Translations under genes and position numbers: made by a program
Assembly (NCBI RefSeq): GCF_029714285.1
Contig: NZ_CP121662.1
Span: 2,910,001-2,974,000, forward strand
DNA length: 64,000 nt
From: Rhizobium sp. CB3090
GTDB taxonomy: Bacteria; Pseudomonadota; Alphaproteobacteria; Rhizobiales; Rhizobiaceae
Direction of reading: 5' to 3'
Notes under the pieces: generated by a model
Seen by the model: the letters and a program-made list of their open reading frames with translations, nothing else
Told to the model about the DNA's origin: nothing
Databases searched by the model: none
Shown: positions 37,741 through 42,017 of the stretch, one piece after another
Layout of the letters: every line of letters begins with the position of its first letter
Numbering within the stretch: position 1 is the first letter of the stretch

Positions 37741-37825
37741 GCCCCATTGGCGGAATTGGTAGACGCGCTCGACTCAAAATCGAGTTTCGAAAGAAGTGCT
37801 GGTTCGACTCCGGCATGGGGCACCA
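37741..37825 (+). tRNA. tRNA-Leu (anticodon CAA)
   Basis: The acceptor stem GCCCCAT pairs with ATGGGGC (37815-37821), followed by the discriminator A and an encoded CCA end. The anticodon stem CTCGA/TCGAG holds the loop CTCAAAA, giving anticodon CAA, which reads UUG. A long variable arm (TTTCGAAAGAAG), as in all tRNA-Leu, and a GGTTCGACTCC T arm are present. It sits exactly at the edge of the AT-rich DUF262-FRG insert. Confidence 0.95.
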
Positions 37826-37909
37826 AATCTCAGAACCTTCCTTAACTGGATATAACCCCGCGGCATCAAGGTGCTGGCAGAGAATGAAAAAGGTTCGATA
37901 CCGAAGTCA

Positions 37910-39013
37910 TTAACGTCCTCCCCCGGGTGAGGGCGGATCGGCCAAAACATCATCCTCAAACGAACGTGGTTTTTTTACTATACCCAGCCATTCTTCGTAG
38001 GCACTGTTCAGAATTTTGACTCGCTCTAAATGTGAAGAGCGATCGTTAATATTGCGAAGCGCGCCCTTGTAGCGCGCGATGTCGTCGTTGCTGGTAAGGA
38101 ACGCGATTGTTTTTTCTTTTAGCTCTTCATAAAACGCTTCCAAGAACGGTCGTACGAGTCGCAACTGATCAACTTCAATGGATCGAACAAACCAATAGAA
38201 GGCCGGCACGCTTCCTGCCGATCTAAGCAATTTGTCTTTCGCGCCGAAAACGACTGCGAGCTTGTCTAGTGTCTGCTGGGCATCGAGTTTTGCTACCTCA
38301 AGCTTTTGATGTTCATTAGCAAAGTCTGTGACAACCTTATCTAGATTTACGCGTTTCGTTTCCGTAACATCGTCTTGCAACTCGAATGCCAAGATTTTCG
38401 CAGCATTATTTTGATTCTCTCCTCGGTCATCTTTATACGATGTGCATTGAACAAAGAAATCATGTTGCGCAATTTCGGCGATTACGGAGGGAACGGTTCC
38501 AATCATTGCGTTGCGCTTTTCCGGTCCTGTGAGCACGATTCCTTTATTCAGGCGCAAAAACAATTCACGAATTCTAGCCGCATCGTCTGTTACAACGTGC
38601 ACCACGGGCATTGGAAATTCTTCAACTCGCTCGGCAAACGGAAATGCAATTTCTACAATATCCCTATAGTACAACCCTGCGAGCTTTAGTTTTGGATTCT
38701 CTTCCAATACAAAACTATCGGACAACGGCATTTCATTACTTAGAAAATCAAATATTGCTTGAAGTCTCTGTTTTCCATCAACCACAGCATACCTCATACC
38801 GGCAGAATTTAACTCCGACTTAATTGTCGTGAAGTCGGCAAAATAGAGCTTAGGCATATCATAGCCATTGATCATGGTGTCGATAAGCGATTGCCTATCA
38901 CCAATCCTCCAAAGTCCCCCCTTGCGCTGATATGGCGGGTTCATATCAATTTGTGACCGCCGGGTAAGCCAGTAGCGTGCGGATTTGAATTGTTGGTGCT
39001 GAATCTCAAACAT
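37910..39013 (-). CDS. DUF262 domain-containing protein (ParB/GmrS-like)
   Basis: Protein of 367 aa with the three hallmarks of DUF262: PPYQR at 26-30, VDGKQRL at 78-84 (the DGQQR nucleotide-binding motif) and LFLRLNKG at 151-158. DUF262 is the nucleotide-sensing half of GmrSD restriction enzymes and of SspE. Here the usual C-terminal nuclease (DUF1524/HNH) is absent; residues after about 200 are helical with no nuclease motif I can see. Its start overlaps the end of the FRG-domain gene by 8 bases, so the pair is translationally coupled. A sampled 60-base stretch is 43% GC, against 65% in the preceding MFS gene. Confidence 0.85.
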   Translation of the reverse strand: MFEIQHQQFKSARYWLTRRSQIDMNPPYQRKGGLWRIGDRQSLIDTMINGYDMPKLYFADFTTIKSELNSAGMRYAVVDGKQRLQAIFDFLSNEMPLSDSFVLEENPKLKLAGLYYRDIVEIAFPFAERVEEFPMPVVHVVTDDAARIRELFLRLNKGIVLTGPEKRNAMIGTVPSVIAEIAQHDFFVQCTSYKDDRGENQNNAAKILAFELQDDVTETKRVNLDKVVTDFANEHQKLEVAKLDAQQTLDKLAVVFGAKDKLLRSAGSVPAFYWFVRSIEVDQLRLVRPFLEAFYEELKEKTIAFLTSNDDIARYKGALRNINDRSSHLERVKILNSAYEEWLGIVKKPRSFEDDVLADPPSPGGGR

Positions 39014-39779
39014 GTGCGCCTCCGTGGCGGCGCCTTATCTCGATGGCCAGCCCTTCCAGATCCGGAAATATAGTTGAATAAGTTATGCCATAGCTTTCCA
39101 AATCAGAAAGCATCTGGGGCTTCATACTCTTATCTATAATAAGCTTTGTAAGTATAGTTGGCTTCACACGATAATCTTGAGCGAAATTCTCCAGAGGCGC
39201 TGGTTGGGGCGCAAAAATCACAAACCGACCTTTTTGCGCGTTTATACGTGGATTGTTCATGATTCCCTGAATAGCCAATGGCTCATTGCGATTGCTTTTT
39301 TCCTTAAACGTTGGGTGATATTGCTTTACCAAGCCGTCATCAGTGGTAAAAATACGCGGCGGCTCTTTGATATCATCCAGTACTACTCCATTCCATGCCG
39401 CCGGGTCGAAGCACCATACGACTGAATTTTCCTTCGAATTTCCTGACATCAAAGCAAAGTAGAGCGCGATAAGTGGACTAGCGGTCCAGTCCAACAGCCT
39501 TGTGGGCGCTCTATAATGCTGCATTAAGAAAAGCAGATCCCATTGATCACGCCGATGCGCATCAAAAAGAGGAGATCTCCTTAAGAATTCATCGTAGACC
39601 GCACTTTCCATCGTCGCGATGTCATTTCTGTCCTCCGGCTTGCGGCCACGGTGAATGAACGGCTCGAGCAAATAGCTCTCTGCACTGTGTCCCCGATACC
39701 AAAGCTCATTTACGGCAACGCGACCTGCCCGAAACTTTTCGATGGCTTTAATGAAATCGCTAAAGCGGGATATTTTCAT
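39006..39779 (-). CDS. FRG domain-containing protein
   Basis: Protein of 257 aa with a complete FRG domain: the defining Arg-Gly in WYRGHS (27-32), then QHYRAPTRLLDW (87-98) and SPLIALYFAL (101-110). The biochemical role of FRG domains is not established; they recur in phage-defence and mobile contexts. A predicted ribosome site AGGGG lies 7 bases before the ATG. It is the first gene of the two-gene unit with the DUF262 gene. Sampled bases 39121-39180 are only 30% GC, which points to transfer from another source. Confidence 0.85.
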   Translation of the reverse strand: MKISRFSDFIKAIEKFRAGRVAVNELWYRGHSAESYLLEPFIHRGRKPEDRNDIATMESAVYDEFLRRSPLFDAHRRDQWDLLFLMQHYRAPTRLLDWTASPLIALYFALMSGNSKENSVVWCFDPAAWNGVVLDDIKEPPRIFTTDDGLVKQYHPTFKEKSNRNEPLAIQGIMNNPRINAQKGRFVIFAPQPAPLENFAQDYRVKPTILTKLIIDKSMKPQMLSDLESYGITYSTIFPDLEGLAIEIRRRHGGAHV

Positions 39780-40065
39780 GAGGATCCCCTCTAATATTTC
39801 GCACAGGTTTACAACGGAAAAGCGAATAAATTTTTAATCGGTTGCATATTGGTGCAGTGAGTTATCGCGAATAACCGAATACAAAAAGGCTAAAGGCGCT
39901 AATCAATTTCCTTACCTGCGGCGCTTTGGACAACGTGTTCACCGAAAAGCATCTCACCCACCCATCACGAAAAATTTTGCCTTTCCGCCACTTCCGTCAT
40001 CCCCCGACCATTTACAGCCATAATCCTCCCCCCTAAAGGTGTGCAACGCAGCAAAAGGGGGCAGA

Positions 40066-41459: not shown

Positions 41460-42017
41460 TTACGGCTGCAGTTCCGTATCCCAATAGAGATAGTCGAGCC
41501 AGCTATCGTGCAGATAGTTCGGCGGAAACAGGCGGCCGTTGTTGTGCAGGTCCTGCACGGTCGGCTGATAGGGTTTCTGCGCCGGGAACATGCCGGCCTG
41601 CTTCGGTAGCTTGCTGCCCTTGCGCAGGTTGCATGGCGAACAAGCCGCGACGACATTTTCCCAGGTCGTCTCGCCGCCGTGGGCGCGCGGGATGACGTGG
41701 TCGAAAGTCAGATCGTCATGATTACCGCAATATTGGCACTCGAACCGGTCGCGCAGGAAGACGTTGAATCGGGTGAAGGCCGGATTGCGGGAGGGCTGAA
41801 CGTAAGTCTTGAGGCAGACGACGCTTGGCAGCCGCATCGAGAAGCTCGGCGACGATACGGATTGATCGTATTCAGCAATGATATTCACACGGTCAAGGAA
41901 GACCGCCTTGATCGCGTCCTGCCAGGACCAGAGCGACAAAGGGTAATAACTCAGCGGCCGATAGTCAGCGTTCAGCACGAGCGCTGGCAGGGACTGCGGT
42001 GAGACTGCAATCGTCAA
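41460..42017 (-). CDS. HNH endonuclease family protein
   Basis: Conserved rhizobial protein of 185 aa with a C-terminal HNH nuclease fold. The zinc-binding CQYC and SPCN pairs flank the catalytic FDHVIPRAHGG (about residues 93-140). The start is a TTG at 42017, chosen because AGGAGGG lies 5 bases before it. The gene is conserved next to other core genes in the Rhizobiales, so a housekeeping DNA-processing role is more likely than restriction. The target is unknown. Confidence 0.85.
   Translation of the reverse strand: MTIAVSPQSLPALVLNADYRPLSYYPLSLWSWQDAIKAVFLDRVNIIAEYDQSVSSPSFSMRLPSVVCLKTYVQPSRNPAFTRFNVFLRDRFECQYCGNHDDLTFDHVIPRAHGGETTWENVVAACSPCNLRKGSKLPKQAGMFPAQKPYQPTVQDLHNNGRLFPPNYLHDSWLDYLYWDTELQP

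What the first reader, a model, noticed from the sequence alone, without database searches (positions are those of the whole stretch)
37910..39779. DUF262-FRG two-gene unit: candidate undescribed defence or stress system
A DUF262 protein (PPYQR at 26-30, DGKQR at 79-83, LNKG at 155-158) and an FRG-domain protein overlap by 8 bases and form one transcript. DUF262 is the sensing or nucleotide-binding part of GmrSD and SspE, but here no DUF1524/HNH nuclease follows it. The FRG domain would have to supply or control the effector. I know of no characterised system built from just these two parts. Both genes are AT-rich and sit beside a tRNA, the usual place for defence islands.
Basis: partly seen in the sequence, partly recalled or inferred. 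Interest (0 to 1): 0.8.

Follow-up and report, generated by a model that had tools for sequence, protein, structure and literature searches.

The report
Conserved FRG–DUF262 candidate defence gene pair
Two overlapping bacterial genes, one for a protein related to DNA-surveying NTP-binding sensors and one for a protein that appears shaped like an ADP-ribosyl-transferring enzyme, occur together across many phyla, with more anti-phage genes around them than in control regions, and look like an uncharacterised phage-defence switch.

Summary
FRG (39006–39779, −) and DUF262 (37910–39013, −) overlap by 8 bases, are AT-rich (46% against 60% GC) and fill a variable spot behind tRNA-Leu(CAA). FRG is the upstream gene. 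The pairing is a widespread unit: 77 of the best 80 DUF262 relatives have FRG directly upstream (spacing −8 to +53 nt), in 14 phyla, and the two proteins co-vary (r 0.86, 89 loci). DUF262 models as an SspE/BrxU/ParB-like NTP-binding domain without DUF1524. FRG models as the ADP-ribosyltransferase fold: weak scores, but all 50 listed entries are of that fold as far as I recognise them, and a published classification agrees. Neighbours hit far more defence models than control regions. New here: a C5 DNA methyltransferase, often with an Eco29kI-type restriction enzyme, sits beside the pair in 14 of 89 loci, including tight C5-MTase–(REase)–FRG–DUF262 arrays; not in the window. Best reading: DUF262 surveys DNA, perhaps its modification, and controls an FRG effector that acts on NAD+ or ADP-ribosylates a target. 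Close kin exist (Menshen, PD-T4-2; FRG is PADLOC candidate PDC-S15), so this is a new variant of a known kind. Activity is untested.

The parts
39006..39779 (-). FRG-domain gene (257 aa), first gene of the pair; predicted ADP-ribosyltransferase-like fold; WYRG at residues 27-30 with invariant R29
37910..39013 (-). DUF262/GmrSD_N gene (367 aa), second gene; ParB/Srx-like N-terminal NTP-binding domain with DGKQR, helical C-terminal half, no DUF1524
39006..39013 (-). 8-base overlap of the FRG end and the DUF262 start
   Evidence: spacing -8 to +53 nt in 77 other loci
37826..39956 (.). accessory segment between tRNA-Leu and the conserved flank of the yqaA-like gene; right edge about 39957-39962; no shared repeat of 11 nt or more with the tRNA end
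   Evidence: comparison with 18 congener stretches that hold both tRNA and yqaA-like gene; 182 bp tRNA-to-gene gap in L261
37741..37825 (+). tRNA-Leu (CAA) bordering the segment
   Evidence: same order MFS gene - tRNA-Leu - yqaA-like gene in those 18 congener stretches

Best explanation
The pair is a small, mobile anti-phage (or anti-element) module. SHOWN by computation: the two genes form one conserved, co-varying unit, patchy in its genus and order; the DUF262 protein has the NTP-binding fold of SspE/BrxU/ParB with the DG(K/R)QR motif but no DUF1524 nuclease; the FRG protein has an ADP-ribosyltransferase-like predicted fold (weak scores); neighbours of the pair elsewhere hit many more defence models than control genes. 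INFERRED: DUF262 is the sensor/gate. It binds an NTP and surveys DNA, most plausibly its modification state as its nuclease-bearing relatives do, and holds or releases FRG through a physical complex. Once released, FRG uses NAD+ through the invariant WYRG arginine, either destroying NAD+ or ADP-ribosylating a host or phage molecule, and stops the infected cell before phage are made. The overlapping reading frames keep sensor and effector in fixed proportion.
For: FRG directly upstream in 77 of the best 80 DUF262 loci, spacing -8..+53 nt; Mantel r 0.86 over 89 loci, highest of 1000 permutations 0.11; 14 phyla. Patchy: 4 of 397 genomes of the order and 4 of 148 of the genus have DUF262 at 170 bits or more. 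15 of 24 viral-contig DUF262 loci carry the pair; of the other 9, L164 is cut at the contig start and 8 are remote DUF262 proteins. PADLOC at E 1e-10: 170 models hit by 133 near neighbours, 5 by 126 control proteins from the same contigs; among the neighbours are Gabija, DpnI-like and Eco29kI restriction genes. C5 MTase beside the pair in 14 of 89 loci, at least 8 changes on the tree; 7 of 9 Eco29kI-family genes in 81 pair-bearing genomes lie within about 11 kb of the pair. ART-like fold; SspE/BrxU/ParB fold. BrxU acts on m5C DNA in vitro (PMC12707154, passages); Frg placed in the ART superfamily and suggested as a NADase (PMC9503650, passages).
Confidence: 0.6

Rival explanations
1. Toxin-antitoxin addiction module: FRG is an ART-fold toxin and DUF262 its antitoxin, kept because it stabilises mobile DNA, with phage defence secondary or absent.
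For: Two overlapping genes; the fold rows include the TA toxins ParT and DarT1; FRG falls in more than one frame in 5 of 77 loci and DUF262 in none; presence on viral contigs.
Against: DUF262 is a large NTP-binding protein related to defence sensors, unlike usual antitoxins; recurrent neighbourhood of C5 MTase/Eco29kI and company of Gabija and DpnI-like genes. The broken-frame count is biased, since loci were found through DUF262.
Confidence: 0.18
2. Modification guard: the pair watches a DNA methyltransferase or restriction system, its own or the host's, and FRG kills or halts the cell when methylation or restriction is disturbed, as PrrC does for EcoprrI.
For: Tight C5-MTase-FRG-DUF262 units in L083, L086, L090 (2-15 nt between MTase stop and FRG start) and MTase-REase-FRG-DUF262 in G069/L326 (2 nt between REase and FRG); 7 of 9 Eco29kI genes near the pair; a related DUF262 lies between an N6/N4 MTase and a helicase-like gene in L340; PrrC guard logic (PMC12707154, passages).
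Against: 75 of 89 loci have no C5 MTase beside the pair; only 1 of 12 Eco29kI loci sampled from the phylum carries the pair, though several of the 12 lie on short contigs; other modification enzymes were not systematically searched.
Confidence: 0.15
3. FRG keeps the ART-like fold but works on RNA or another nucleotide, for example a Tpt1/KptA-like 2'-phosphate chemistry, so the unit repairs or processes RNA under stress.
Against: Rows within 1 Z unit are tied; a repair enzyme would not explain the patchy, virus-borne, defence-linked distribution.
Confidence: 0.06

Closest known systems
Menshen (PADLOC NsnA/B/C; that Nsn stands for Menshen is recalled)
   Same: Nearest PADLOC match of the DUF262 protein (NsnA, 92 bits); DUF262 without DUF1524 next to a separate effector gene
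   Different: [quoted passage not shown] here the partner is FRG
PD-T4-2
   Same: DUF262 protein plus one partner (PD-T4-2_A 47 bits); deleting it raises T4 plaquing (PMC9519451, passages)
   Different: PMC10952713 lists a HEPN domain for it (passages), not FRG
GmrSD / BrxU / SspE / DndI
   Same: DUF262 fold and DG(Q/K)QR motif; SspE, BrxU and the DndBCDE-DndI entry 9jfl are among the fold matches
   Different: GmrSD, BrxU and SspE carry a DUF1524/HNH nuclease; here none, and FRG takes the effector place
PDC-S15 (PADLOC phage-defence candidate) and the Frg clade of the ART superfamily
   Same: FRG protein hits PDC-S15 at 169 bits; published placement in the ART superfamily (PMC9503650, passages)
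   Different: That PDC-S15 is a one-gene candidate is read from its code (recalled naming); I found no report of the fixed DUF262 partner or of the C5-MTase neighbourhood
PrrC-EcoprrI (guard of a restriction system)
   Same: Accessory effector beside a restriction-modification system in a minority of our loci
   Different: PrrC is an anticodon nuclease with a type IC system (PMC12707154, passages); no homology claimed

Membership tests
GmrSD-family type IV restriction enzyme | DUF262 (PF03235) NTP-binding domain with (I/V)DGxQR | tested here: met
   PF03235 53 bits; D79, G80, Q82, R83 invariant in 36 sequences; SspE and BrxU head the fold list
GmrSD-family type IV restriction enzyme | DUF1524 / HNH nuclease fused or adjacent | tested here: not met
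   No Pfam match in either protein; partner is FRG in 77 of 80 loci
Menshen (NsnABC) | NsnA-type DUF262 protein | tested here: met
   NsnA, E 1e-26, 92 bits, residues 19-244
Menshen (NsnABC) | OLD-type ATPase/nuclease partners | tested here: not met
   The segment between tRNA-Leu and the yqaA-like gene holds only these two genes, and none of the 10 flanking proteins checked hits NsnB/NsnC at E 1e-6
PD-T4-2 | HEPN-type partner (PD-T4-2_B) | tested here: not met
   All 15 PADLOC matches of the FRG protein up to E 1 are PDC-S15 models
PDC-S15 / FRG domain family | FRG domain over the PF08867 cut-off | tested here: met
   82 bits against cut-off 25; PDC-S15 169 bits
ADP-ribosyltransferase superfamily | ART fold | tested here: inconclusive
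   [not shown]
ADP-ribosyltransferase superfamily | NAD-binding arginine on the first strand and a catalytic glutamate | tested here: inconclusive
   R29 of WYRG is invariant in 34 sequences and lies on strand 27-31; the start offsets of three alignments would put R29 on the NAD-binding arginine (residue numbers recalled) if no gap falls before it (one search gives ranges only); no glutamate could be placed
ADP-ribosyltransferase superfamily | NAD+ cleavage or ADP-ribose transfer | not testable with these tools
   needs enzymology

The most novel reading that the evidence does not exclude
FRG-DUF262 is the death-or-arrest arm of a modification-surveillance system: DUF262 reads cytosine methylation, set by a linked C5 methyltransferase where present or by host or phage enzymes otherwise, and licenses an ADP-ribosyltransferase-fold effector. 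This would make C5-MTase-(Eco29kI REase)-FRG-DUF262 a restriction system with a built-in NAD+/ADP-ribose abortive arm.
Probability: 0.25. Interest if true: 0.85.

Novelty: new variant of a known kind. Interest (0 to 1): 0.66.

Why it matters
It gives part of the large, uncharacterised FRG family a fixed partner and a testable trigger. It also shows that the DUF262 sensor, known mainly with DNA nucleases, has been stably joined to an ADP-ribosyltransferase-like protein in at least 14 phyla. If the methyltransferase link is functional, it connects DNA-modification sensing with NAD+/ADP-ribose biology, two defence currencies usually treated apart.

Tried and rejected
GmrSD/SspE-type restriction enzyme: rejected as membership, since no DUF1524 is present. 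Menshen and PD-T4-2: partners not found. A defence island in the window: the segment holds only these two genes; of 10 flanking proteins, which I read by eye as metabolic or housekeeping, one methyltransferase-domain protein matches part of the mad2 model (73 bits) and one HNH protein matches PtuB (32 bits). Integrase-made island with att repeats: no shared stretch of 11 nt or more with the tRNA end. Sequence search of solved structures: nothing for FRG up to E 10; for DUF262 only a marginal DUF262 entry (9jfl, E 0.01) among chance-like hits. Natural fusion as proof of contact: one database protein, P0254, reads FRG and the start of DUF262 as one frame, but the joint looks to me like a frameshift; L072 joins the FRG start to the middle of DUF262; neither is counted. 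Promoter scan uninformative. Paper searches pairing DUF262 with FRG gave 0 papers, in an open-licence library only; the one paper naming PDC-S15 was seen as a listing; no search was made for FRG with Eco29kI or C5 methyltransferases.

Rows dropped before counts: the 80 genome loci are the best 80 of 212 found with two peptide patterns. For PADLOC I passed 133 of 140 neighbour proteins and 126 of 139 control proteins; the rest are over 850 aa. The tables show only the first 25 families each. The tree and Mantel set holds 72 of the 77 genome pairs (L004, L037, L043, L049, L080 dropped for split or cut FRG), 15 viral pairs, G069 and the window. PF00145 was searched in 50 of the 81 genomes only. 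The link label on the tree (14 of 89) was set by me from C5-MTase positions within about 1.5 kb of the pair, or next to an adjoining Eco29kI gene; L021 and L076 (MTase about 5 kb away) and L060 (about 10 kb) were not counted.

Full report
WHAT IS THERE. Two minus-strand genes lie between a tRNA-Leu(CAA) (37741–37825) and a yqaA-like gene at about 40060: FRG first (39006–39779, 257 aa), then DUF262 (37910–39013, 367 aa), overlapping by 8 bases. Pfam confirms both domains and finds no DUF1524. PADLOC gives NsnA (92 bits) and PD-T4-2_A (47 bits) for DUF262 and PDC-S15 (169 bits) for FRG. NCBIfam gives nothing over a cut-off; PHROGs match families of unknown function.

THE PAIR IS A REAL UNIT. A scan of one genome per GTDB species with the DUF262 alignment kept the best 80 of 212 loci. 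In 77 of 80 an FRG gene stands directly upstream on the same strand. Of the three others, L072 joins the FRG start to DUF262 in one frame, and L055 and L058 have no FRG. The spacing runs from −8 to +53 nt, and in 72 of 77 it is 11 nt or less. Protein distances of FRG and DUF262 correlate at r 0.86 over 89 loci; the highest of 1000 permutations is 0.11. The tree (quick method, SH-aLRT support only) has rows from 14 named phyla. In the window's genus the DUF262 proteins at 300 bits or more have FRG (three of three: G000, G908, G897), whereas G968 (171 bits) and the five weaker ones examined (G469, G993, G481, G956, G023) do not. FRG is the larger family: PF08867 is in 40 of 397 genomes of the order, DUF262 of this type (170 bits or more) in 4.

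ACCESSORY AND MOBILE. The order MFS gene – tRNA-Leu – yqaA-like gene is kept in 18 of the 20 congener stretches fetched; the other two end before the tRNA. The tRNA-to-gene gap in the 18 runs from 182 to 3481 bp with different contents, and BLASTN with the pair's DNA finds nothing in any of the 20 stretches. The right edge of the window's segment is at about 39957. The pair is also on 15 of 24 viral-contig loci found with DUF262 and on a Hymenobacter plasmid. In annotated phages, tblastn gave 10 records with DUF262, none covering 80% of the query, and 10 with FRG, 9 of them covering 80%; their neighbours were not read.

COMPANY. I took the two nearest reading frames of 130 codons or more on each side in 35 loci (mechanical calls, longest first), and the same number from stretches of the same contigs centred at least 60 kb away. 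At E 1e-10, 133 neighbours hit 170 PADLOC models and 126 controls hit 5. The counts are of models, several per protein, so the number of defence proteins is not known exactly. Pfam names four Eco29kI endonucleases, three C5 methyltransferases and one DpnI-type enzyme among the families shown; PADLOC without the seven RM proteins adds Gabija A and B, among others. The 10 window proteins checked have no such company.

THE METHYLTRANSFERASE LINK. C5 methyltransferases sit beside the pair in 14 of 89 loci; the state changes at least 8 times on the tree, and one five-member clade (L065, L083, L086, L087, L090) has it throughout. In L083, L086 and L090 the order is C5 MTase–FRG–DUF262 with 2–15 nt between MTase and FRG, and in L090 a Vsr gene follows. 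In G069, from the window's own family, MTase–Eco29kI REase–FRG–DUF262 is one array with 2 nt between REase and FRG. Among 81 genomes (the 80 loci's and the window's) there are 9 Eco29kI-family genes over the cut-off, in 8 genomes. Seven of them, in 6 genomes, are on the pair's contig within about 11 kb: six within about 3 kb, and one in G513, a borderline match, about 10 kb away. The other two (G1003, G1026) are on other contigs. Such surroundings are about half a percent of a genome, so this is far from chance, though two of the genomes are of one genus. In reverse, 12 of 398 genomes of the phylum have Eco29kI, and 1 of 12 has the pair next to it; several of the 12 are on short contigs. So the link is real but optional, and absent from the window: the window's genome has one C5 MTase, over 1 Mb away, and no Eco29kI gene.

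HOW IT PROBABLY WORKS. DUF262 relatives bind NTPs and respond to DNA modification (PMC10952713 and PMC12707154, passages). Related DUF262 genes in the same genus stand beside other partners: AAA ATPases in L342 and L344, an N6/N4 methyltransferase and a helicase-like gene in L340 (the helicase is read by eye). This fits a sensor with exchangeable effectors. I therefore read DUF262 as the gate and FRG as the effector. NAD+ consumption or ADP-ribosylation is inferred from fold and literature, not shown.

VERDICT. A conserved, co-varying, probably defensive two-gene module with an effector pairing that I found nowhere described, and a statistically strong tie to cytosine methylation genes in a minority of loci. 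Known kin keep it from being categorically new. 'Nowhere described' rests on searches in an open-licence library; the methylation tie was not searched for in print beyond, whose two papers were seen as passages (PMC12707154) and a listing (PMC8565348).

Noticed in passing
window 41460-42017 (-): HNH-type protein near the segment with a weak PADLOC PtuB hit (32 bits). It lies beyond the yqaA-like and dsbB-like genes (names by eye), probably core, so I do not take it for the missing nuclease of this DUF262.
   Followed up: partly
window 37910-37972 (-): The last ~20 residues of DUF262 have no counterpart in close orthologues, as if the 3' end had run on into the tRNA-side flank.
   Followed up: no
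L252-L271, tRNA-Leu to yqaA-like gene: This gap is a variable spot in the genus, with different contents: by eye a Fic-like gene in L256, a ParA-like gene in L259, a transporter in L266 and L268-L271; 182 bp in L261.
   Followed up: partly
L223-L251: In many other genera of the family tRNA-Leu(CAA) is also close to the yqaA-like gene but points the other way than in the window's genus, so the spot has been rearranged.
   Followed up: no
L340:7986-11303: A related DUF262 gene (171 bits) lies between an N6/N4 DNA methyltransferase gene and a large helicase-like gene, another DUF262 tied to DNA modification.
   Followed up: partly
L090:6757-7191: A Vsr mismatch-endonuclease gene directly follows C5 MTase-FRG-DUF262 on a viral contig; a Vsr-like frame also stands by L087 (by eye).
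   Followed up: no
L004, L009, L037, L042, L049: FRG falls in more than one frame in 5 of 77 loci while DUF262 is in one piece in all. Search bias through DUF262 and assembly errors are not excluded.
   Followed up: no
plasmid collection: FRG relatives (all under 60% identity) occur in 345 plasmid records, 256 of them conjugative, most often Enterobacter, Klebsiella and Citrobacter; this DUF262 matches only 35 records, 3 with 80% coverage. Most plasmid FRG genes thus seem to lack this type of DUF262 on the same plasmid.
   Followed up: no
G000:C1:1803427-1804368: The window's genome has one C5 DNA methyltransferase match, more than 1 Mb from the pair.
   Followed up: no
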